Shown: positions 8,316-30,040 of the stretch, one piece after another
How positions within the stretch are numbered: position 1 is the stretch's first letter
Layout: each line of letters begins with the position of its first letter
Source of the DNA: Flavobacterium tiangeerense
Lineage (GTDB): Bacteria; Bacteroidota; Bacteroidia; Flavobacteriales; Flavobacteriaceae
Assembly: GCF_007830355.1 (NCBI RefSeq)
Contig: NZ_VLKO01000005.1
Coordinates: forward strand, 124,001 to 188,000
Direction of reading: 5' to 3'
DNA length: 64,000 nucleotides
Notes under the pieces: generated by a model
What the model was told of the DNA's origin: nothing
Seen by the model: the letters and a program-made list of their open reading frames with translations, nothing else
Database searches by the model: none
Translations under genes and position numbers: made by a program

Positions 8316-8573
8316 TTGGGCGTGCCCCTCCGTGAAAAACTTCGGGTCAGGCTGTACACTGCAATCTTTGTGTTTTTAAAGAAAAAACACAAAGGATTTT
8401 CGCTGCCATCCTTCACGCGAGCCCAGTTTTCAGTTGCTGATTTTTTAATAATTTGTAAGATAATTTTAATATATTTGGAAAACGCAAAGCGAAACAAAAC
8501 TTTGATTATCTACTCATGTTTAGTTGTGTGTATGAAGGTTTGTTTTGCTTATATACAAGTTGGTAGTAATTTT
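8316..8573 (+). repeat. Dispersed two-hairpin element, copy 1
   Basis: This is a 258-base intergenic element shared almost base for base with 13062-13317 and 16898-17156. It begins TTGGGCGTGCCCC, then has GGGTCAGGCTGT. Next comes a hairpin (AATCTTTGTGTTTTT pairing with AAAAACACAAAGGATT), then CCATCCTTCACGCGAGCCC. After that come the octamer TATATTTG (8470-8477) and a second imperfect hairpin. It fills the gap between the dehydrogenase terminator and the next gene. I see no transposase, terminal inverted repeat or target duplication. It is open in one frame from a TTG at 8316, but that is a by-product of the repeat and not a coding start. Confidence 0.9.
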
Positions 8574-13061: not shown

Positions 13062-13317
13062 TTGGGCGTGCCCCTCCGTGAAAAACTTCGGGTCAGGCTG
13101 TACGCTACAATCTTTGTGTTTTTAAAGAAAAAACACAAAGGATTTCCGCTACCATCTTTCACGCGAGCCCGGTTTTCAGTTGCTGATTTTTATTAAATAG
13201 TAAGAAAATTTGTTTATATTTGAAAAACGCAAAGCGAAACAAACCTTAGATTATTTCCACATGTTTGGTTGTGTATAAGAAGGTTTGTTTCGTATATATT
13301 AAAGTTAGGTGTAATTT
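13062..13317 (+). repeat. Dispersed two-hairpin element, copy 2
   Basis: This 256-base copy is nearly identical to copy 1. Its right-hand hairpin is the best formed: the 13-base arms 13235-13247 and 13280-13292 are perfectly complementary. TATATTTG lies at 13215-13222. The copy ends AAAGTTAGGTGTAATTT, two bases before the next ATG. It occupies nearly all of the 339-base gap between the TonB receptor and the next gene. Confidence 0.9.
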
Positions 13318-16897: not shown

Positions 16898-17156
16898 TCT
16901 TGGGCGTGCCCCTTCGTGAAAAACTTCGGGTCAGGCTGTACGCTGCAATCTTTGTGTTTTTAAAGAAAAAACCCAAAGGATTTCCGCTGCCATCCTTCAC
17001 GCGAGCCCAGTTTTCAGTTGCTGATTTTTATAAAATAGTAAGAAAATTTTAATATATTTGGAAGGTGCAAAGCGAAAAAAACTCTTGATTATCTGCACAT
17101 GTTTGGTTGTGTATACGAAGGTTTGTTTTGCTTATATGCAAGTTGGCGGCAATTTT
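16898..17156 (+). repeat. Dispersed two-hairpin element, copy 3
   Basis: This 259-base copy matches copies 1 and 2. In the central hairpin one arm has changed (AACCCAAAGG for AACACAAAGG), giving one mispair. TATATTTG is at 17053-17060. With the direct repeat at 16771-16847 it fills the 473-base gap between the GNAT and serine hydrolase genes. Confidence 0.9.
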
Positions 17157-20976: not shown

Positions 20977-22440
20977 TTATGATTTGGCTGATTGTATAGT
21001 TATTGGTAAACTGTACAGCACTCTCACAGGGACGCCATCTACTTTACCAGGAATCCATTTTGGGCATAAGTTCATCACACGTATCGCCTCGTCACCTGTG
21101 CCAAAACCAATATCACGAAGGTTTTTTACTTCACTAATACTGCCGTCTTTTTCAATGATAAAAGTGATGTAAATTTTCCCTTTTAAATTGGGTTGTTCAG
21201 GAGTTTTGTAATTGTTACCTACGAATTTGTAAAAACTGTTCATACCGCCAGGGAAATCTGGTTTTTCCAGTATTTCTGAGGTATTATAGAGGTCGTTTTC
21301 TCCTTTTTTTACAATCTTATTTTCAAGGCTAAACGGATCTATTTCCATAGTTTCAGGAGCACCTTTGCTTAATTTGGTTAAAAGTTCCTCGTTGGTTGGG
21401 AGTTTTTCTTCTTTTGATAAAATCGATGGGATCGCCCTTTTTTCGGTAGGAGTTAAGTCGTTGTACTTTTTTTCGGCGGCAATTTTTCCCTTTTCATCTT
21501 TTACCTTAAAAGTGGTTTTATTGTAGTAGGTAGTAAACAAACTCCCCACTTTGTTAGGTTGCGCATTTTGTTGGGTACCTATTTGTTGCGCCACTACCTT
21601 GGTGCATAGTGAAAATAGTAACGCTGTTACCGCAGGCAAGAGCAAGGCTTGCTTGGCAATGGCTTTTCTTTTTGATGTGGTTTTAGTCATCATAAGTAAT
21701 CGTTTTTTAGTTATTAAATAGTTCAAATTACTGGCCAAGTAAAAAGTTGGGTTCGCGTTTGCCTTTGAGAGCAACAGGGATTGGTAAAACGGAACATTGT
21801 TATAAGAGTGCACTACTTTCTCATCGGCGAGAAATTCGTGGTTGAGTTGAATGGCTTTTTTATAAAAAATGAAAACGGGGTTGAACCAAAAAACAGTTTT
21901 CAATACTTCAATAAATAAAATATCCAAAGTATGTTTTTGAGTCACATGCGTAAGCTCGTGGGTGTACAATTCGGCCTCAACTTCGCGGTTGTTGTATTCC
22001 ATTTCGTTGATGAAAATGGTATTCAAGAACGTGTGCGGTAACGTTTTTTCGGGAACCAAAATCAGTTGAGCATTCTGGTATGCAATGGGAGTATTGGACT
22101 TCATTTTTTTTGAAATCTGAACCACATTGCGCAGAAATCGAAACCCCAAAACAAGAGTGACCAATCCATACAAACCCCAAAGTGCTATGCCAAAATAGTT
22201 CGTTTCTTCCACCACAACCGCAGTTACCGGTAGGATTTGGATATTTCCCGGTGTTACTGTGGGTTGCGCAATTTCCTGAACAACTTCAATAGTTATAAAA
22301 GGAATCACCATCGAAAAAACCAAAGCAAACAACAAGTAAAACCTATTGAAATGGTGCATTTTTTCCTTTTCTAGCAGCAAGTGATACACTCCTAAAAGTA
22401 CCACAAGGCTAAGAGTCGATTTGATTAGAAAGTCGGTCAT
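20977..22440 (-). CDS. M56 (BlaR1-like) metallopeptidase with C-terminal TonB domain
   Basis: This is a 487-residue membrane protein. Helices at about 5-22, 34-52 and 84-102 precede the zinc motif HELTH (161-165) and NHEFLADEKVVH. A fourth helix lies at about 265-285. The periplasmic tail carries a TonB C-terminal domain (KPDFPGGMNSFYKFV, then GKIYITFIIEKDGSISEVK). In Bacteroidota, BlaI-M56 pairs sense and relay envelope signals by cleavage of BlaI. The TonB tail suggests an additional mechanical or binding role. It is the third gene after blaI and another M56 gene whose first 255 residues are nearly identical. It may respond to beta-lactams given the nearby beta-lactamase, but that is inference. 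Confidence 0.9.
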   Translation of the reverse strand: MTDFLIKSTLSLVVLLGVYHLLLEKEKMHHFNRFYLLFALVFSMVIPFITIEVVQEIAQPTVTPGNIQILPVTAVVVEETNYFGIALWGLYGLVTLVLGFRFLRNVVQISKKMKSNTPIAYQNAQLILVPEKTLPHTFLNTIFINEMEYNNREVEAELYTHELTHVTQKHTLDILFIEVLKTVFWFNPVFIFYKKAIQLNHEFLADEKVVHSYNNVPFYQSLLLSKANANPTFYLASNLNYLITKKRLLMMTKTTSKRKAIAKQALLLPAVTALLFSLCTKVVAQQIGTQQNAQPNKVGSLFTTYYNKTTFKVKDEKGKIAAEKKYNDLTPTEKRAIPSILSKEEKLPTNEELLTKLSKGAPETMEIDPFSLENKIVKKGENDLYNTSEILEKPDFPGGMNSFYKFVGNNYKTPEQPNLKGKIYITFIIEKDGSISEVKNLRDIGFGTGDEAIRVMNLCPKWIPGKVDGVPVRVLYSLPITIQSAKS

Positions 22441-22468
22441 TTTTTCTTTTTTAGAATTTCATTGTCTA

Positions 22469-23833
22469 TTAGGTGTTTCTTTCAACCATCCTAATCAAAA
22501 CGGGATTTGAGAATGTTCCAGCTTTTATGGTTTTTTCAATTACTTTATAAGAAACACTTTTTCTGCTTTTTTTTATAATCATTTCACGTTCAGAGTTGGT
22601 GAATAGAGCATAATGATTTAGATCAATATCATAAGGTTTACCGTTTCGTGATGGACTGTAAAATCTTATATAACCAGCAATTTCTTTTATATCATGTTTT
22701 TTTAGATCAATATTGTTTAATTTTTTTCCTTTAAATAGTCCTGAAAACTTGGGATCTTTAGTCCAACTGTCAAACTCTTTTTGTGTTGGCTTTTTCATTG
22801 AAGTTTCTGGTGGAACATTGCTAATATAGAAACGCTTTTCATTTGGAGTTAGTGCTTCATATTTTTTGTCCAATAGTACTTTTTTCGTATCATCCTTTAC
22901 AATCAATCGAACTCCTTTGTAATAAACGTCTCTTTTTTTAATTTCAGACTGTATGGTAGTGTTGTTGTTTGTGCTGGATTGAGCAATTGTTTGTGTACAC
23001 ATTAAATTTACTAGTCCAGTAAATAACGGAATCAAAATGATTTTCTTCGCAAATGATTTTGAGCTTGATGTGGTTTTAGTCATCATGAGTAATCGTTTTT
23101 TAGTTATTAAATAGTTCAAATTACTGGCCAAGTAAAAAGTTGGGTTCGCGTTTGCCTTTGAAAGCAACAAAGATTGGTAAAACGGAACATTGTTATAAGA
23201 GTGCACTACTTTCTCATCGGCGAGAAATTCGTGATTGAGTTGTATGGATTTTTTGTAAAAAATAAAAATAGGGTTGAACCAAAAAACGGTTTTCAATACT
23301 TCGATAAACAAAATATCCAAAGTATGTTTTTGAGTCACATGCGTAAGCTCGTGTGTGTATAATTCGGCTTCAACCTCACGGTTGTTGTATTCCGTTTCGT
23401 TGATGAAAATGGTATTCAAAAACGTATGCGGTAACGTTTTTTCGGGAACCAAAACCAATTGAGCATTTTGATATGCAATGGGAGTATTGGACTTCATTTT
23501 TTTTGAAATCTGGATCACATTACGCATAAATCGCAACGCCAAAACAAGGGTAACCAAACCATACAATCCCCAAAGCGCTATTGCTGTATAGTTTGTTTCT
23601 TCCACTACAACGGCAGTTGTTTGTAGAATTCGGATATTTCCTGCTGTAACCGTGGGTTGTGCAATTTCCTGAACAACTTCAATAGTTATAAACGGAATCA
23701 CCATCGAAAAAACCAAAGCAAACAACAAGTAAAACCTATTGAAACGGTGCATTTTTTCCTTTTCTAGCAGGAAGTGATACACTCCTAAAAGCACCACAAG
23801 GCTGAGGGTTGATTTGATTAGAAAGTCGGTCAT
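22469..23833 (-). CDS. M56 (BlaR1-like) metallopeptidase, tandem paralogue with a different tail
   Basis: This is a 454-residue protein. Residues 1 to about 255 are nearly identical to the downstream paralogue, including helices, HELTH (161-165) and LADEKVVH. From TTSSSKSFAKK onward the fourth helix (IILIPLFTGLVNLMCTQTIA) and the tail diverge completely. This tail lacks a TonB domain. It has TPNEKRFYISNVPPETSMKK and ends VLIRMVERNT, with no family I recognise. The start overlaps the blaI stop by 4 bases (ATGA-type coupling), so it is the primary BlaR-like partner. The two genes are a recent tandem duplication with tail replacement or divergence. Confidence 0.9.
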   Translation of the reverse strand: MTDFLIKSTLSLVVLLGVYHFLLEKEKMHRFNRFYLLFALVFSMVIPFITIEVVQEIAQPTVTAGNIRILQTTAVVVEETNYTAIALWGLYGLVTLVLALRFMRNVIQISKKMKSNTPIAYQNAQLVLVPEKTLPHTFLNTIFINETEYNNREVEAELYTHELTHVTQKHTLDILFIEVLKTVFWFNPIFIFYKKSIQLNHEFLADEKVVHSYNNVPFYQSLLLSKANANPTFYLASNLNYLITKKRLLMMTKTTSSSKSFAKKIILIPLFTGLVNLMCTQTIAQSSTNNNTTIQSEIKKRDVYYKGVRLIVKDDTKKVLLDKKYEALTPNEKRFYISNVPPETSMKKPTQKEFDSWTKDPKFSGLFKGKKLNNIDLKKHDIKEIAGYIRFYSPSRNGKPYDIDLNHYALFTNSEREMIIKKSRKSVSYKVIEKTIKAGTFSNPVLIRMVERNT

Positions 23834-24204
23834 TTTTTCTTTTTTAGAATTTCACTGTCAATTATTTTCTTGAGTTCTTCCAGTTCCGTTTGCGACAAAT
23901 TAGTTTCTTTGGTAAAGAAAGAAGCAAATTGTGATGCCGAATTGTTGAAGAAATTACTAATCAATCCGTTAACGTGTTTCGAGAAATAGTCGGTTTTTTT
24001 GACCAAAGGATAATATTCTCTTGAGTTTCCATATTCGCGGTAGGCTACAAATTGCTTGTCAATCATGCGTTTTAGCAAAGTAGCAACCGTTGTGGTAGCG
24101 GGTTTTGGCTCTGGATAGGCTTCGAGTAAATCTTTCATGAAGGCTTTTTCGAGTTGCCAAAGGTGTTCCATGAGTTGTTCTTCTGAGTTGGTGAGCTGTT
24201 GCAT
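23830..24204 (-). CDS. BlaI/MecI/CopY family repressor
   Basis: This is a 124-residue winged-helix protein. LTNSEEQLMEHLWQLEKAFM and TTVATLLKRMIDKQFVAYRE form the winged helix typical of BlaI/MecI. A C-terminal dimerisation region (SQTELEELKKIIDSEIL) follows. The family represses its own operon and target genes, and is inactivated by proteolysis triggered by the M56 partner encoded immediately downstream. The 4-base overlap with the first M56 gene indicates translational coupling. Target operators cannot be assigned from the window. The residues usually cleaved (Asn-Phe in BlaI) are not obvious here; NNSASQFASFF is a possible region. Confidence 0.93.
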   Translation of the reverse strand: MQQLTNSEEQLMEHLWQLEKAFMKDLLEAYPEPKPATTTVATLLKRMIDKQFVAYREYGNSREYYPLVKKTDYFSKHVNGLISNFFNNSASQFASFFTKETNLSQTELEELKKIIDSEILKKKK

Positions 24205-24639: not shown

Positions 24640-24795
24640 ATTCTACAGTTTGAAACATTGCTCTACAAATGTAGAGTAAAATTTGAAATAAACAAATGTT
24701 TTGTAAAAAAATTGTCCGTCAAGGATTTACAGGAGTAATTGAAATAGAGTCTTGATATAGCCATATATCGATTTAACAGTAGACTCCATCTAGCC

Positions 24796-24896
24796 GTAAG
24801 AAATTTGTTTATATTTGAACAAGAAAAATCGAAACATACCATCGAAAATGTAGCTTGACTTAGGTTTGTTTCAAATAAGTACAAGTCCGCAGTAAC
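24796..24896 (+). repeat. Dispersed element, right-half copy 4
   Basis: It corresponds to the right half of copies 1-3: GTAAGAAATTTG, TATATTTG (24810-24817), GAAACATACC pairing with GGTTTGTTTC, and a closing AAGTCCGCAGTAA. The left hairpin is missing. It lies immediately before the LprI-like gene. Confidence 0.75.
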
Positions 24897-24929
24897 GACC
24901 TGTTGAACCAAAATAAAATAACAACTAAA

Positions 24930-25283
24930 ATGAAAATAAAATATTATACCACTGTTCTAATTGCTTTATTTTTTTCTATTAATTCATTTTCTCAAACACA
25001 GTTAGAAATGAATAAAGCGGCTGATGCTAAATTTAAAAAAGCTGATGCCGAACTCAATAAAGTGTACAAGCAATTAATATCAATTCTTGATCAAAATGAT
25101 AAGTTATTATTGATTCAAGCTGAAAAGGATTGGGTTAAATTTAGAGATTCAAGCTGTAAATTTGAATCTTCACAATATGAAGGCGGAAGTATAAAGCCTC
25201 TCATTTATTCAACTTGTTTGGAAGAATTAACAAGGAAAAGAATTTCAGAAATTAGAGTAAGTATAAAAGAAAGAGATAAATAA
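24930..25283 (+). CDS. LprI-like (DUF1311) secreted protein
   Basis: The ATG at 24930 gives 117 residues starting MKIKYYTTVLIALFFSI with a signal peptide ending near FSQTQ. The mature part has the DUF1311/LprI pattern ADAELNKVYKQLISIL, then AEKDWVKFRDSSCKFE and a paired Cys in STCLEELTRKR. The family includes lysozyme inhibitors and many uncharacterised envelope proteins. A four-helix, disulfide-stabilised fold is likely. It stands alone on the plus strand directly after repeat copy 4, which supplies a candidate -7 octamer. The longer frame from TTG at 24903 is less likely. Confidence 0.85.
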   Translation: MKIKYYTTVLIALFFSINSFSQTQLEMNKAADAKFKKADAELNKVYKQLISILDQNDKLLLIQAEKDWVKFRDSSCKFESSQYEGGSIKPLIYSTCLEELTRKRISEIRVSIKERDK

Positions 25284-25416
25284 CGCAATGCTTACACAAG
25301 CCAAATAAAGGCCTTAATCCAATCATAAGCCACGAACAGTAATGGAATCCTAATGAATTGAGCAGAAGCAACTAAACTAGCTATAATTCCTATTGTAAAA
25401 CGTAAAAATAAAAAAC

Positions 25417-25857
25417 ATGGCACTTATTAATCCTCATCTTAACTTTAATGGAAACGCGGAAGAGGCATTCCATTTTTATAAATCAGTTTTTGGCGGAGAA
25501 TTTTCCAAGCTACTGCGCTTTAAAGACTTGGCAAGTCCTGAATTTCTTATTGCAGAAAATGAAGAAAATAAAATAATGCACATTGCTTTGCCTATTGGCC
25601 AAAACATTTTAATGGGTAATGATGTTCCCGAAAGTATGGGGAGCACAAATGAAAATGAACACAGAAGTAAAATTGCTATTAGAGCTGATAGCAAAGATGA
25701 AGCCGATACATTATTTTACGGACTTTCATCAGGAGGAAGTATTGAAATGCCTCTTGTAGATAGCCCTTGGGGTTCCTACTTTGGAATGTTTAGAGATCAA
25801 TTTGGGATAGAATGGATGGTAGAATATGACAGTAATGCTATAAAAGTGCAGCAATAA
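25417..25857 (+). CDS. VOC/PhnB-like glyoxalase-fold protein
   Basis: This is a 146-residue cytoplasmic protein. MALINPHLNFNGNAEEAFHF and YKSVFGGEFSKLLRF are the hallmark opening of PhnB-like VOC proteins. SPWGSYFGMFRDQFGIEWMV is the closing motif. Members are usually small dimers of unknown substrate, often described as bleomycin-resistance- or demethylubiquinone-methyltransferase-like. No catalytic claim is possible. It is 16 bases upstream of the lgt-like gene and probably shares its transcript. Confidence 0.9.
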   Translation: MALINPHLNFNGNAEEAFHFYKSVFGGEFSKLLRFKDLASPEFLIAENEENKIMHIALPIGQNILMGNDVPESMGSTNENEHRSKIAIRADSKDEADTLFYGLSSGGSIEMPLVDSPWGSYFGMFRDQFGIEWMVEYDSNAIKVQQ

Positions 25858-25873
25858 ATAGTAATAATAAAAT

Positions 25874-26701
25874 ATGACAACACTATATATCAATTGGGAT
25901 TTTGATTCCGAAATAATAAATATTTTTGGTTTCCCCTTAAAATATTATGGGCTTTTATTTGCCAGTGGCTTACTTTTAAGCATGTACATTCTTAAAGTAA
26001 TTTACAGAAGAGAAAACTTAACAGATAGCGCTCATGAAGCATTGTTTCTATATGGAATTATAGGGATTTTTGCTGGAGCAAGATTGGGACATTGTTTGTT
26101 TTATGATTTTGACTATTATTCAAAAAACGTATTAGAAATTTTTTTACCCATTCAAAAAACGATAAACGGAGGATATAAATTTAGTGGTTATGCGGGTTTA
26201 GCCAGTCATGGTGGAACGGTTGGGTTGATTGTTTCACTTTTTTTATATTCAAAAAAATATGAAATAAAATACCTGAAAATACTAGATTTGATTGCTATTG
26301 TTGCGCCATTGGGAGCTGCATTTATAAGACTTGCCAACTTAATGAACTCAGAAATGATAGGCAACCCCACAACCTTGCCTTGGGCTTTTATTTTTAGTAG
26401 GATTGATAGTGTTCCTAGACATCCAGCCCAACTTTATGAAGCCATTGCGTATCTGCTCATTTTCGGGATTGTTTTTGCTATTTACAAAACGAAAAACATT
26501 ACGCTAGGAAATGGATTTTTGTTTGGTCTGGCAATAACTTTAATTTTTACGATGCGCATTTTAATTGAGTTTGTCAAAATCAATCAAGTAGAATTTGAGG
26601 AGGGAATGCTATTGAATATGGGGCAATTGTTGAGCCTGCCTTTTATAGCAATTGGGATCTATTTTATGGGAAAGAATGTAACAAGAAAGCGGTCATACTA
26701 A
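25874..26701 (+). CDS. lgt: Prolipoprotein diacylglyceryl transferase
   Basis: This is a 275-residue inner-membrane protein with about seven hydrophobic helices. The Lgt signature is clear: FKYYGLLFASG-like PLKYYGLLFASGLLLSM, GARLGHCLFYD, SHGGTVGL, RLANLMNSEMIGNPT and PRHPAQLYEA. The enzyme transfers diacylglycerol from phosphatidylglycerol to the lipobox cysteine of prolipoproteins. The residues thought essential (His in SHGG, Arg in GARLGH, Asn in LMNSE) are present. It sits in the accessory region behind a VOC gene. It may be an extra copy beside a housekeeping lgt elsewhere, which the window cannot decide. Confidence 0.95.
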   Translation: MTTLYINWDFDSEIINIFGFPLKYYGLLFASGLLLSMYILKVIYRRENLTDSAHEALFLYGIIGIFAGARLGHCLFYDFDYYSKNVLEIFLPIQKTINGGYKFSGYAGLASHGGTVGLIVSLFLYSKKYEIKYLKILDLIAIVAPLGAAFIRLANLMNSEMIGNPTTLPWAFIFSRIDSVPRHPAQLYEAIAYLLIFGIVFAIYKTKNITLGNGFLFGLAITLIFTMRILIEFVKINQVEFEEGMLLNMGQLLSLPFIAIGIYFMGKNVTRKRSY

Positions 26702-26926
26702 AAATCCAGAGCATTGAGGGTTAAACAACAGTTTTGGGAATTGACTTAATGTATAGCTTGTTTCGGATTTGTAAAATAAGGATGAATCAAAACGTTTGAT
26801 TTCAATAAATTATACAATATCAAAACAAGGAATTTCCATCTAGCGAAAAACCTAAATCATGAATTTTTCAAAAGCTACTGTTGATTTCATGGTGTTATTG
26901 ATTTAACGCTAATGATGCAGAGATAC

Positions 26927-27042
26927 GTAAGAATTTTTGTTTATATTTGGAGAGTACATATTGAAACATACTTTTGTTAGCTTAGTAAGATTTAGGTTTG
27001 TTAAGCAAGATTTGTTTTGAAAATATATTAATTGGTAGTAAT
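26927..27042 (+). repeat. Dispersed element, right-half copy 5
   Basis: This is a degenerate right half: GTAAGAATTTTTG, TATATTTG (26942-26949), GAAACATAC, GGTTTGTT and a closing ATTGGTAGTAAT, as in copy 1. It lies within the 378-base gap between lgt and the nuclease-like gene. The rest of that gap (26702-26926) shows no ORF or structure I can name. Confidence 0.7.
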
Positions 27043-27079
27043 CATGCTGTAAACCACTAAAAAAACAAATTTATAATTA

Positions 27080-28093
27080 ATGAATTACACTTTTACAAAT
27101 ACAGAAATTAACAATAAGAAAGCTTCTGATTTTGAAACAAAATCTCTGTTATATTTAATAAGTCGTAAGAAAGAAATAGAATATATTACTTTTGATTGTT
27201 TTAATGATGTAAGTGGTGTGAATAAAAATCATGATAAAATTTGGGATGTACAATCCAAAAATGAAAAGTCATTAACGCCAAAAAAAATCGGGAAATATCT
27301 CTTTACTTTATTTGATAATTATATTTCAACTTTTTCATTTCATGAATTCATTTTTTTCTCACCGATATTGAATGAAAATTACAAAATAAATTCAAAATTA
27401 AATGTCTATAATCTTGACAATATTGAAGAAACAACTTTAAAAAGAATATTGAACGGATTAACAGAAGAAGTTGAAAGAGTAAAAGGAGATTCATTTGACT
27501 ATTCTGAAAAAATTGAACTATTCTTGCGGAAAGTTTTCATTGTAGAAGATAATAGTACAGAAAATGAATATATAAAGTCAGTAACCAAGTTTAAGAAAGT
27601 AGGAATAAAATCTGATGATTTTTATACAAGTATATTTACAGATTTAAGAAATATACAAAGTGCAAAAAAAAACACTTATATCGAAAATGAAATAATTTCA
27701 GAAATCCGTGACGTATTAACTTTTAATCGCCATTTAACGAAGAAGGACATTGAAATTCTAATTATTAGTCGAATTATTGGAGTAGAAATTTTTAATTATG
27801 CTTCGATTCCAATTACTTTTTTTCCAATAATCAAAAGTTTTGACAACGAAGAGATAAAAGATATTTTACAAGAATGTAATTCTAATCTTTCTCGTGCGTT
27901 TTTCAACAAAAACAGTAATAGAGTTTTTTGGAATGTTTGTGAAAAAATAATAATCTTCTTAAATGATAACAAATCTAGCGACGTTGAATATATTTATTCT
28001 GAAACGTTTAAAGATTATACTTTCCGAATTTCTTATTTAAAAGATTTTACAATCAAATATTTAATATCAATAATAATAGAAGGAACGAAATGA
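27080..28093 (+). CDS. Putative PD-(D/E)xK nuclease-fold protein (Cap4/DUF4297-like N-terminus)
   Basis: This is a 337-residue soluble protein. The N-terminal 65 residues fit a restriction-nuclease core. E19 lies in a helix (SDFETKSLLYLISRK), acidic D43 follows a strand (ITFDCFNDVSG), and D56-x-Q58-x-K60 forms the second strand (KIWDVQSKNE). The QxK variant is typical of Cap4/DUF4297-type nucleases of anti-phage systems. The remaining 270 residues are helical and unrecognised. The stop overlaps the ATPase start by 4 bases (ATGA), so the two are translationally coupled. It lies directly behind repeat copy 5. A role in a nuclease-plus-ATPase conflict system is inferred, not shown. Confidence 0.65.
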   Translation: MNYTFTNTEINNKKASDFETKSLLYLISRKKEIEYITFDCFNDVSGVNKNHDKIWDVQSKNEKSLTPKKIGKYLFTLFDNYISTFSFHEFIFFSPILNENYKINSKLNVYNLDNIEETTLKRILNGLTEEVERVKGDSFDYSEKIELFLRKVFIVEDNSTENEYIKSVTKFKKVGIKSDDFYTSIFTDLRNIQSAKKNTYIENEIISEIRDVLTFNRHLTKKDIEILIISRIIGVEIFNYASIPITFFPIIKSFDNEEIKDILQECNSNLSRAFFNKNSNRVFWNVCEKIIIFLNDNKSSDVEYIYSETFKDYTFRISYLKDFTIKYLISIIIEGTK

Positions 28094-29220
28094 TAGTAAA
28101 AGAAGTAGCGTTTGGAAACTTAAATGAAGCTTTCATTGAGAAACGATTTGAAAATAAAACAAATATAATTTTTAGTAACGATAATAATAGAGGAAAAACT
28201 TTGCTAATGCAAAGTTTAATTTATTCAATAGGTTATGAATCAATATTTCCAAATAGTTTCAATCCAAAGAAATATTATTTTTATTCAAAAATAGAATTTA
28301 ACAATTCAATTTTTGAATTCTTAAGAAAAGGAAATTCCATTTTAGTAATAAATAATGAAAGTTTTAATGTTTTTAGTACTATAAGTGAATTCAAATATTT
28401 TTTCGATAAAGAGATATTTAAACTTCCAAAAATTGATAAAAATGGTGAACAAAAATTAGTTGATTTAAGTCTTTTCTATGAATTGTTTTTTCTTGGTCAA
28501 GACAATAGAAATACTTCAAATCTGATAGTTAAAGGTCAAAATAATAAAGTCGATTTTTTAAATATGATTTATTCACTTTTAGGTGTTTCAATTTCAACAA
28601 GTAATAAATATGATATTGAAAATCTAAAAAAAGAAAAAGCAAATGTTGAAACTAGAATAAAAGCTGAAACAAGAAAAATAAAAGTCATTAAACAAAATCC
28701 TCAAATTGCATCTTTTATTAGTTCTGCATCTAATAATTTGGATTTTAAAAACACTTCTAATCAATTAAAAGAATTACACTTAAATATAGCTGAATTAAGA
28801 AAACAGAGAAATAGAGAAGAAAACAGAAAAATAAAATTAGAGAATTTAATAACTGAATTATCTTCACTTAACAGAACCTTAAATGAAGGAAAAGTTAAAT
28901 GTCTTGATTGTGGTAGTAATAAAATTATTTTCTCAAATGAAGATTTTGAATTTGAAGTGAGCAATAATTACGTTAAAAAAAATATTATTGAATCAATTAA
29001 AAATAACATTTCAATAAAATTTGAAATAATAGATGAATTAAATCAAAATATTCATCGAGAACAAATTCAAATAAATAAATTATTAGAAACTTCAACTCCT
29101 GATATTAAAAACTACATTCTCTTTCAAGACGAAATTACAGACTCAAAAGATGTAGATAAAATTATAGCTGAACTTCAAAAAGAATTGGATGAAATAACTA
29201 ATAAAATTCAAAACAACTAG
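28090..29220 (+). CDS. ABC/SMC-type ATPase, N-terminal part ending at an in-frame TAG
   Basis: This is 376 residues. Near the N-terminus is a Walker A variant, NDNNRGKT (residues 30-37, first Gly replaced by Asn). FFLGQDNRNTS then looks like a Q-loop. Coiled coils span about 175-260 and 300-376, with KCLDCGSN between them as a CxxC knuckle that could cap a hairpin, Rad50-like. There is no ABC signature or Walker B here. Both occur after the stop in the same frame (29245-29697). The TAG at 29218-29220 therefore splits one ATPase of about 535 codons. It could be a nonsense mutation, a sequence error, readthrough, or a true two-subunit arrangement. Confidence 0.75.
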   Translation: MIVKEVAFGNLNEAFIEKRFENKTNIIFSNDNNRGKTLLMQSLIYSIGYESIFPNSFNPKKYYFYSKIEFNNSIFEFLRKGNSILVINNESFNVFSTISEFKYFFDKEIFKLPKIDKNGEQKLVDLSLFYELFFLGQDNRNTSNLIVKGQNNKVDFLNMIYSLLGVSISTSNKYDIENLKKEKANVETRIKAETRKIKVIKQNPQIASFISSASNNLDFKNTSNQLKELHLNIAELRKQRNREENRKIKLENLITELSSLNRTLNEGKVKCLDCGSNKIIFSNEDFEFEVSNNYVKKNIIESIKNNISIKFEIIDELNQNIHREQIQINKLLETSTPDIKNYILFQDEITDSKDVDKIIAELQKELDEITNKIQNN

Positions 29221-29244
29221 ATTAAAACTTCATCAAATAAAGAT

Positions 29245-29697
29245 TTGCAAAAAGATATTTTATCAGATATTATTTTGCAAATGAAAAATTATTATTCGAC
29301 AATTGATCCACAGGGGTTAATAATATTTGAAGATTTATTTACAAAAACAGGTGAAACATATTCGGGAAGCGAAGGGCAAGAATATTATTTCAGTAAAATA
29401 TTATCTCTAAATAACATTTTGCAACATAAATTTCCAATAATAATTGATTCTTTCAGAGAAGGAGAATTGTCATCTTCAAAAGAACTCTTAATGTTAAATG
29501 AATATATAAGCCTAAATAAGCAAGTAATACTAACTTCTACCCTTAAAGACGAAGAATACGATGCTGATAAATATTATAATATTGAAAACTTAAATGTTAT
29601 TGATTATTCAATGTTAGCCGATAGTAAAATATTACAAAGTGATTTTGCTTCTGAATTTAAACAAATATTGGCAAAATTTAATGTTGAAAATAATTAA
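29245..29697 (+). CDS. ABC/SMC-type ATPase, C-terminal part in the same frame
   Basis: These 150 residues are in the same frame as the preceding ATPase. The frame is open from just after its TAG, and a TTG at 29245 is the only early start. It carries the missing half of an ABC ATPase: an LSGGQ-like signature (YSGSEGQEYYFSKI), a Walker B strand (KFPIIIDSFREGE) and a downstream strand QVILTSTLKDEEYD where the H/switch loop is expected. The Walker B Asp is followed by Ser rather than the usual Glu. On its own it has no Walker A and cannot form a complete site. It may be expressed separately by re-initiation or not at all. Confidence 0.65.
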   Translation: MQKDILSDIILQMKNYYSTIDPQGLIIFEDLFTKTGETYSGSEGQEYYFSKILSLNNILQHKFPIIIDSFREGELSSSKELLMLNEYISLNKQVILTSTLKDEEYDADKYYNIENLNVIDYSMLADSKILQSDFASEFKQILAKFNVENN

Positions 29698-29894
29698 TAA
29701 AATATACTCAATAAGTAATTAAACATCTGTTATGTTAAAAGAAAAGAACTTGTAAATTCAAATTCTTTTGCGATCCTATGTTTACTTCCAATCATTGGCA
29801 ATATTGTTTAGTTAGCTATTAACCCAACAGGTTAACTACAAATTTTCTACAACTAAAACCATTTTATCTCCTCAAAAAAAAACTATCAACGAGC

Positions 29895-30040
29895 ACTATT
29901 TTGCGTTAAGGATGGAAGTGGAAATCCTTTTTAGGCGCCTTTTTTTGGCGGCTAAAAAGATTAAGAACGAACAGCCTGACCTTGTTGCTTGACGAATGGT
30001 GTTTTTCAAGAAGGATTTTGTGCAACAAGTGAACGCCCAA
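29895..30040 (-). repeat. Dispersed element, left-half copy 7 (inverted, divergent hairpin)
   Basis: On the minus strand it starts TTGGGCGT. It has an insert of about 50 bases, then GGTCAGGCTGT, AATCTTT and AAAGGATTTCC, and CCATCCTTAACGC. The central arms are CTTTTTAGCCGCC and GGCGCCTAAAAAG, different in sequence from copies 1-3 but still complementary. It begins right behind the dipeptidase terminator and fills about half of the 390-base gap 29698-30087. The other half has no recognised feature. Confidence 0.75.

What the first reader, a model, noticed from the sequence alone, without database searches (positions are those of the whole stretch)
27080..29697. Candidate defence locus: QxK nuclease-like gene overlapping an ABC/SMC-type ATPase
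The first protein has E19, D43 and D56-x-Q58-x-K60 in a PD-(D/E)xK arrangement as in Cap4/DUF4297 effectors. The second has a degenerate Walker A (NDNNRGKT), coiled coil and a CxxC knuckle, with a signature motif and Walker B following. The genes overlap by four bases and lie in the accessory region directly behind a mobile-looking repeat. Nuclease plus SMC-like ATPase pairs occur in Lamassu/DdmABC and ABC-three-component systems. No gene matching a third component is visible here, so this may be a reduced or new variant.
Basis: inference. Interest (0 to 1): 0.75.

Follow-up and report, generated by a model that had tools for sequence, protein, structure and literature searches.

The report
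Broken Lamassu-like phage-defence gene pair
Two overlapping genes encode a DNA-cutting enzyme and a DNA-sensing ATPase of the Lamassu antiviral kind, but in this bacterium the sensor gene carries a premature stop, so this copy is probably a recently disabled member of a widespread, still untested defence family.

Summary
The pair is real. Gene A (27080-28093) folds as a Cap4/DUF4297-type nuclease with a helical C-terminal domain (pLDDT 93). Its best structural match is LmuA of a solved two-protein LmuAB-DNA complex. Gene B is a Rad50/SMC-like LmuB-type ATPase (profile E 4e-15; fold Z 26.8). The nearest, a 95%-identical cassette in a Flavobacterium MAG with different flanks, is uninterrupted. 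The family is already listed in PADLOC as candidate PDC-M22; one library search found no paper naming it. No third gene is shared among the loci examined, as in two-gene (type I) Lamassu, so it is not 'reduced'. Verdict: a divergent member of the two-gene Lamassu kind, carried as a small cassette and most likely inactive in this strain. Anti-phage activity is inferred, not shown.

The parts
27080..28093 (+). Gene A: Cap4/DUF4297-type nuclease with C-terminal helical domain (PADLOC PDC-M22A, LmuA-like), 337 aa, open frame intact
   Evidence: PADLOC PDC-M22A 4.6e-143; model pLDDT 93.1; best folds LmuA/Cap4/DUF4297-type
27242..27259 (+). Nuclease motif W55-D56-V57-Q58-S59-K60 (D-x-Q-x-K)
   Evidence: D56 77 of 78, Q58 78 of 78, K60 78 of 78 relatives; E19 and D43 likewise
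28090..29220 (+). Gene B, N-terminal part (376 aa): N-lobe of the ABC head with Walker A, first coiled-coil arm, CxxC hook, part of the second arm; ends at in-frame TAG
   Evidence: (PDC-M22B)
28174..28200 (+). Walker A, S-x-x-N-N-x-G-K-T (residues 29-37 of B)
   Evidence: partly selected for by the scan pattern
28900..28911 (+). CxxC zinc-hook-like motif (C271, C274)
   Evidence: 83 of 83 relatives
29218..29220 (+). In-frame TAG (codon 377) inside the second coiled-coil helix
   Evidence: '1 TAG'; no internal stop in B of 84 of 85 related loci
29221..29697 (+). Gene B, severed C-terminal part: rest of coiled coil, signature and Walker B half of the ATPase head, same frame, no further stop (longest listed ORF in it 29245-29697, TTG start)
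   Evidence: (PDLC04526 positions 380-533, 2.4e-63)
29362..29373 (+). ABC signature SGSE (residues 425-428)
29437..29457 (+). Walker B IIIDSFR (450-456); D453 in 83 of 83, never followed by Glu or Gln
27032..29693 (+). Cassette shared at 95% nucleotide identity with L013 (Flavobacterium sp. MLJ.10 MAG); similarity stops at both ends
24713..29899 (.). Accessory segment absent from three of five related regions compared; also holds LprI-, glyoxalase- and Lgt-like genes

Best explanation
The locus is a copy of a two-gene, Lamassu-like defence cassette (PADLOC's candidate PDC-M22). Protein B, as a hook-joined dimer of Rad50/LmuB-like ATPases, would hold protein A, a Cap4-type PD-(D/E)xK nuclease, inactive. 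On binding an abnormal DNA structure (ends, hairpins or replication intermediates of phage or plasmid), B would close around ATP and DNA and release A. A would then multimerise and cut DNA, stopping the infection, probably at the cost of the cell. The degenerate Walker B suggests slow or no ATP hydrolysis, that is, a one-way switch. In this strain B is cut in two by a premature TAG that removes the signature and Walker B half of the head. The sensor should not close ATP sites, and the system is most likely dead here while A remains intact. Shown here: sequence family, folds, conservation, gene overlap, absence of a shared third gene, the stop, the cassette's occurrence in different surroundings. 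Inferred by analogy with Lamassu: sensing, release, nuclease activation, abortive outcome, loss of function.
For: Family: PDC-M22A 4.6e-143 for A; PDC-M22B for both pieces of B; LmuB models at 2.6e-12 and weaker for B. A profile of 83 B proteins finds Lamassu LmuB 9ux7_A at 4.4e-15 over residues 19-496; the next hit is a designed helical protein at 3e-4. In that alignment the CxxC hook and the D-S-F Walker B coincide. hhalign of B with two LmuB proteins from the same order: 98.3%, E 1.4e-14. Folds: B best 9ux7_A, Z 26.8 (rmsd 26.6, 478 aligned), then type II LmuB (24.0, 23.2), then condensin/Rad50 (about 21). A best 9ux7_C, Z 12.3 (rmsd 11.3, 263 aligned, 14-335), then HerA-associated DUF nuclease, LmuA and Cap4 chains at Z 10-12 and rmsd 3.5-5. 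Conservation: E19, D43, D56, Q58, K60. Operon: of 85 related loci, 80 have an A-sized ORF, 78 of them with a QxK motif, and 71 of those 78 overlap B. No shared third gene. Of 143 neighbours scanned some match methyltransferases, GajA, PtuA, AriA, BrxL, resolvases and integrases. Cassette: 27032-29693 is 95% identical to L013, the only blastn match between 14 kb of the window and the 17.6 kb locus. Stop. TAG ends 7 other long ORFs of the window, so it is a normal stop.
Against: No activity is shown for this family in anything I saw. A is not found by PADLOC's LmuA models up to E 10, nor by PDB sequence search, nor by hhalign against a shallow two-sequence LmuA profile (probability 1.1), so its link to LmuA rests on fold alone; the full-length fold match has a large rmsd (11.3), and the nuclease half fits Cap4 and DUF4297-type chains nearly as well. 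Neighbour counts have no matched control. The C-terminal fragment of B shows no frameshift or further stop, and its replacement pattern against L013 (13 changed, 18 silent codons) is not significantly looser than the rest (25, 62; Fisher p 0.19), so decay is recent or not proven.
Confidence: 0.68

Rival explanations
1. The TAG is a sequencing or assembly error, or a strain-level polymorphism, and the system is intact and active in most cells of this species.
For: Everything else in B is in frame, and an almost identical uninterrupted copy exists. Only one genome of the species was available.
Against: PADLOC holds a separate PDC-M22B model exactly 376 positions long that scores this fragment at 844 bits, so the truncated protein was probably already in its source data (possibly from this same genome, hence not independent). 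Eight other copies in the family also show damage in A or B, so lesions are not rare; some of those could be sequencing errors too.
Confidence: 0.13
2. B works as two polypeptides: the 376-aa piece and a separately started C-terminal piece reassociate into one ATPase head, so the system is active though split.
For: Same frame, a TTG start codon shortly after the stop (29245), no further lesion. Separately expressed halves of Rad50 heads are known to associate (recalled, no call).
Against: B has no internal stop in 84 of 85 related loci, and the other (L086) is frameshifted. The cut lies inside the second coiled-coil helix (residues 337-405), leaving the C-piece about 28 residues of it.
Confidence: 0.05
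3. The family is not a defence system but a DNA repair or chromosome-processing nuclease of the SbcCD/Rad50 type.
For: B also resembles Rad50/SbcC heads (Z about 20-21).
Against: Sporadic presence (1 of 299 genus genomes; 2 of 395 in the order), a cassette found in different surroundings, plasmid and viral-contig copies, defence- and recombinase-like neighbours (no control), a Cap4-type rather than Mre11-type nuclease, Lamassu as best match for both proteins.
Confidence: 0.08
4. The family is a defence system that arose separately from Lamassu: a Rad50-like ATPase that recruited a Cap4 nuclease on its own.
For: A has no sequence-level match to LmuA.
Against: B is closest to LmuB of the two-gene LmuAB complex by profile and fold, and A's best fold match is the LmuA of the same complex.
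Confidence: 0.06

Closest known systems
PADLOC PDC-M22 (PDC-M22A + PDC-M22B)
   Same: A matches end to end (4.6e-143); B's first piece matches the 376-position model (3.7e-255) and its second piece the end of the 535-position model (2.4e-63); same two-gene order.
   Different: In the window B is in two pieces. PDC-M22 is a catalogue entry; no paper in the searched library names it.
Two-gene (type I) Lamassu, LmuAB (PDB 9ux7; loci L122, L123 here)
   Same: Nuclease gene followed by a Rad50/SMC-like ATPase gene, no LmuC in 9ux7's LmuAB complex title nor next to the pair in L122/L123; CxxC hook; Walker B D-S without Glu; best fold match for both proteins. That 9ux7 is type I is my inference from its title and the companion 'type II' entries.
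   Different: Only 12-17% identity in the structural alignments; A not recognised by LmuA models or profile comparison; B about 535 aa against 562-576.
Three-gene (type II) Lamassu / DdmABC / ABC-3C
   Same: Cap4 nuclease and SMC-like ATPase folds (9hqx, 9uxh, 9nyg).
   Different: No third gene: none in the window's flanks, none shared among related loci; no type II LmuB among the 53 PDB sequence hits of the B profile.
Cap4 (CBASS) and HerA-associated DUF4297 nucleases
   Same: Same nuclease fold (6vm6, 9c1m).
   Different: Partner is an SMC-like ATPase, not HerA; the C-terminal half does not align with the SAVED half of Cap4 beyond about residue 275.

Membership tests
Lamassu, two-gene type (LmuAB) | LmuB: Rad50/SMC-like ATPase with short coiled coil | tested here: met
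   For the family: (uninterrupted relative L013 folded). In the window copy the head is split by the TAG.
Lamassu, two-gene type (LmuAB) | LmuA: N-terminal effector domain plus C-terminal docking domain, encoded next to lmuB | tested here: met
   Fold over 14-335 matches 9ux7_C (Z 12.3, rmsd 11.3, 263 aligned); adjacent, mostly overlapping genes (71 of 78). Docking itself not tested.
Lamassu, two-gene type (LmuAB) | Effector related to LmuA by sequence | tested here: inconclusive
   No LmuA model up to E 10; hhalign probability 1.1 against a two-sequence profile.
Lamassu, two-gene type (LmuAB) | No LmuC | tested here: met
   No ORF of 60 aa or more between 26701 and 27080 or between 29697 and 29896; no shared neighbour among 292 ORFs of at least 120 aa or 492 ORFs of at least 50 aa in 158 flanks of up to 1 kb. 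No LmuC profile was searched by itself.
Lamassu, two-gene type (LmuAB) | Protection against phage or plasmids | not testable with these tools
   Needs experiment.
Lamassu type II / ABC-3C | Third (middle) component LmuC between or beside the two genes | tested here: not met
   Same evidence as the 'No LmuC' row; genes overlap in the window.
PADLOC PDC-M22 | PDC-M22A and PDC-M22B models both matched, adjacent | tested here: met
   (B in two frames).
Cap4/DUF4297 nuclease fold | PD-(D/E)xK core with E, D and QxK | tested here: met
   geometry of the site and cleavage not tested.

The most novel reading that the evidence does not exclude
PDC-M22 is a separate lineage from the known Lamassu types: a Rad50-like sensor that works as a non-hydrolysing, one-way DNA-structure switch and acquired its Cap4 nuclease independently, with overlapping, co-translated genes in place of a third regulatory protein. 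The window copy would be a natural loss-of-sensor mutant that tolerates a free, intact nuclease gene, meaning that A alone is not toxic.
Probability: 0.12. Interest if true: 0.45.

Novelty: new member of a known kind. Interest (0 to 1): 0.3.

Why it matters
It ties an unnamed catalogue entry (PDC-M22), found here on contigs labelled as eleven phylum-level groups, to two-gene Lamassu. It gives the active-site, P-loop and hook residues to mutate. It also warns that a tool reporting 'PDC-M22 present' in this strain would be reporting a probably dead system. The intact nuclease beside a broken sensor suggests that the nuclease alone is harmless, which is easy to test.

Tried and rejected
Reassigned TAG codon: rejected, since TAG ends 7 other long ORFs in the window.

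Reading the repeat as a mobile element: rejected. The exact ends of the accessory segment were not worked out.

Third component: looked for as neighbours of at least 120 aa and then of at least 50 aa; only recombinase-like and small scattered groups clustered.

Neighbour scan: one ORF each side under 900 aa gave 145 of 292 neighbours; I dropped two that are remnants of A (L008, L074) and scanned 143. At least one other A remnant (in L039) stayed in. Only the first 25 of 164 PADLOC and of 117 Pfam families were shown. There is no control set.

Pfam and NCBIfam: nothing meaningful for A or B alone. With 83 B members, AAA_23 matched 9. PDB sequence search with A: nothing relevant.

Phage records: no B relative. 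Viral contigs: 2 relatives out of 317 stretches that matched a pattern.

Selection test on the severed half: not significant.

Papers sought and not held: the 2025 Lamassu structure papers by Haudiquet, by Li M and by Li Y, and the 2024 DdmABC palindrome paper. I know them only from reference lists seen.

Caveat: the relatives were found with two peptide patterns (the P-loop and a QD motif), so invariance of those columns is partly by construction. The hook, signature, Walker B and all of A were not selected on. 80 of 95 relatives were kept by the tool.

Full report
What is there. ORF A runs 27080-28093 (337 aa). ORF B starts at 28090 inside the end of A, but stops at an in-frame TAG at 29218-29220, after 376 codons. 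The same frame is open again to 29697. The whole-genome search describes B as one match over 533 model positions with '1 TAG' inside. The first piece of B holds Walker A, the first coiled-coil arm, the CxxC hook and part of the second arm. The second piece holds the signature and Walker B.

Family. PADLOC names A PDC-M22A (4.6e-143) and both pieces of B PDC-M22B (3.7e-255; 2.4e-63). The next models for the first piece of B are LmuB of Lamassu (2.6e-12 and weaker) and one PDC-M46B model (4.4e-11). One PDC-M22B model is exactly 376 positions long and scores the first piece at 844 bits, so the truncated protein was probably in PADLOC's source data, perhaps from this very genome. Pfam and NCBIfam have no meaningful model for either protein. 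'PDC' stands for phage defence candidate (PMC11514479, passages). No paper in the searched library contains 'PDC-M22'; a search for 'PDC-M' with PADLOC lists papers that mention other such entries (listing).

Distribution. B relatives occur in 1 of 299 genus genomes (this one) and 2 of 395 order genomes (this one and one more). A relatives occur in 1 of 395 phylum genomes (this one). In the species-level genome collection 262 stretches matched a pattern, 95 encode relatives and 80 were kept. By submitters' labels they fall into eleven phylum-level groups, most in Bacillota, Pseudomonadota and Bacteroidota; metagenome bins can be wrong. Two plasmid records and two viral contigs out of 317 pattern matches carry it; phage records do not. 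The B tree (84 rows, quick method) clusters by phylum but needs 16 label changes against a minimum of 10, which is compatible with some transfer and is not proof of it.

Operon. In 85 related loci (L003, L005-L088) 80 have an A-sized ORF next to B, 78 of these with a QxK motif, and 71 of those 78 overlap B (30 by 11 bases, 28 by 4, 9 by 1, 4 by 14). Genes overlapping in this way are usually co-translated (general knowledge). Among 292 neighbouring ORFs the largest shared group has 13 members at mixed positions and includes transposase- and recombinase-like proteins. Among 492 small ORFs in 158 flanks the largest group covers four loci. So there is no shared third component. In the window itself no ORF of 60 aa or more lies between 26701 and A or between 29697 and 29896. 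One gene each side (143 of 292 neighbours) was scanned, without a matched control and with only the first 25 families shown: hits include methyltransferases, GajA, PtuA, AriA and BrxL models, six resolvases and four integrases.

Protein A. The alignment of 76 sequences gives a confident model (pLDDT 93.1, pTM 0.89). The fold is the Cap4/DUF4297 nuclease fold: Foldseek's top hits are LmuA of Salmonella Lamassu (2.4e-5), LmuA of the LmuAB complex 9ux7 (5.6e-4), another LmuA (6.1e-4) and a HerA-associated DUF protein (9.4e-4), then Cap4 chains. The aligner gives 9ux7_C Z 12.3 over 263 residues spanning 14-335, with rmsd 11.3, which may reflect a domain shift. 9hqx_A (type II LmuA in complex) also spans 17-327, at Z 6.8. 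Other LmuA, HerA-associated and Cap4 chains cover mainly the nuclease half at Z 10-12 and rmsd 3.5-5. E19, D43, D56, Q58 and K60 are present in 76 of 76, 77 of 78, 77 of 78, 78 of 78 and 78 of 78 relatives that have a residue there; five of 80 rows lack one or more of these columns or differ. At sequence level A matches no LmuA model, and hhalign against two LmuA proteins found nothing (probability 1.1). That is the weakest link in the assignment.

Protein B. The uninterrupted relative L013 (95.9% identical) was folded (pLDDT 82.3; residues 260-276 around the hook under 50). The best fold is 9ux7_A, LmuB of the same complex (Z 26.8, rmsd 26.6, 478 aligned), then type II LmuB (24.0, 23.2), then condensin/Rad50 (about 21). 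The profile of 83 B proteins finds that LmuB at 4.4e-15; the other 52 hits look like coiled-coil or chance matches. hhalign with two LmuB proteins from the same order gives 98.3%, E 1.4e-14. Those two loci (L122, L123) are themselves two-gene, DUF4297-type LmuA plus LmuB, the architecture seen here. Walker B has D453 in 83 of 83 relatives, followed by S 60, C 9, Y 7, A 2, F 2, G 2, H 1, never Glu or Gln. LmuB of Lamassu likewise departs from the catalytic Glu (to Gln) and is thought to hydrolyse ATP slowly or not at all (PMC10586767, passages).

Mechanism. [quoted passage not shown] type I is the two-gene form, and LmuA is liberated and forms a tetramer on activation (PMC12409362, passages); DNA ends or stem-loops are proposed triggers (PMC12904381, passages). 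The B dimer would hold A inactive, sense abnormal DNA, and release A to cut DNA. Every step after 'A has a nuclease fold and B is an LmuB-like ATPase' is inference.

The broken copy. L013, in a Flavobacterium MAG, carries the same cassette at 95% nucleotide identity over window 27032-29693, with no other blastn match in the surroundings compared, and its B is uninterrupted. Of the 85 related loci, 84 have no stop inside the matched part of B (one of them, L037, runs off its contig); L086 is frameshifted in B. Damage or loss in A was seen in L008, L039 and L072 (frameshift), L082 (N-terminal part lost and a frame change), L005 (first 21 residues, with E19, missing), L057 (short, lacking the D43 region) and L074 (N-terminal part not found; this is a long-branch row, so it may be divergence). 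L021, L048 and L083 are too close to contig ends to judge. Counting the window, 9 of 86 copies show damage. TAG is an ordinary stop here (7 other long ORFs end in it). The severed half carries 13 changed and 18 silent codons against L013, the rest 25 and 62; the difference is not significant (p 0.19), which suggests a recent event. The cut falls inside the long second coiled-coil helix (337-405), so the two halves of the ATPase head are separated and loss of function is the simplest reading. One genome cannot exclude a sequencing error or a polymorphism.

Setting. Of five related regions compared, three place the sequence left of window 24713 within about 15 to 330 bases of that right of 29900; in a fourth the gap is about 1.8 kb and in the fifth the left side does not align. 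The 5.2 kb segment is therefore accessory; it also holds LprI-, glyoxalase- and Lgt-like genes. A second Lgt gene lies elsewhere in the genome. Its right end coincides with a Flavo-1 RNA.

Verdict. It is a real and correctly guessed kind of system, already catalogued as a candidate, close to two-gene Lamassu and probably disabled in this strain. The new points are the tie to LmuAB, the residue map, the two-gene layout across the family and the stop.

Noticed in passing
29898-29985 (+); also 8341-8428, 13087-13169, 16925-17012 (-): Four Flavo-1 RNA matches (RF01705, 58-59 bits) in one 64 kb window; one sits at the right border of the accessory segment.
   Followed up: partly
25874-26701: An accessory Lgt (prolipoprotein diacylglyceryl transferase) paralogue next to the defence cassette; another Lgt gene lies elsewhere in the genome on contig C9.
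   Followed up: partly
24804-24870 and 26936-27002: 72%-identical 67-base direct repeat flanking the LprI/glyoxalase/Lgt genes; contains TTTG/TATATTTG-like letters as in Bacteroidota promoters (motif recalled, not tested).
   Followed up: partly
L005, L008, L039, L057, L072, L074, L082, L086: Other PDC-M22 copies with a frameshifted, shortened or N-terminally incomplete A, or a frameshifted B: disabled copies seem fairly common in the family.
   Followed up: partly
L122:3077-5919, L123:2921-5736: Two further two-gene, DUF4297-type Lamassu loci in the same order, matched by PADLOC LmuA/LmuB models.
   Followed up: partly
20977-24204 (-): Two M56/BlaR1-type peptidase genes next to a penicillinase-repressor-like gene, just left of the accessory segment.
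   Followed up: no
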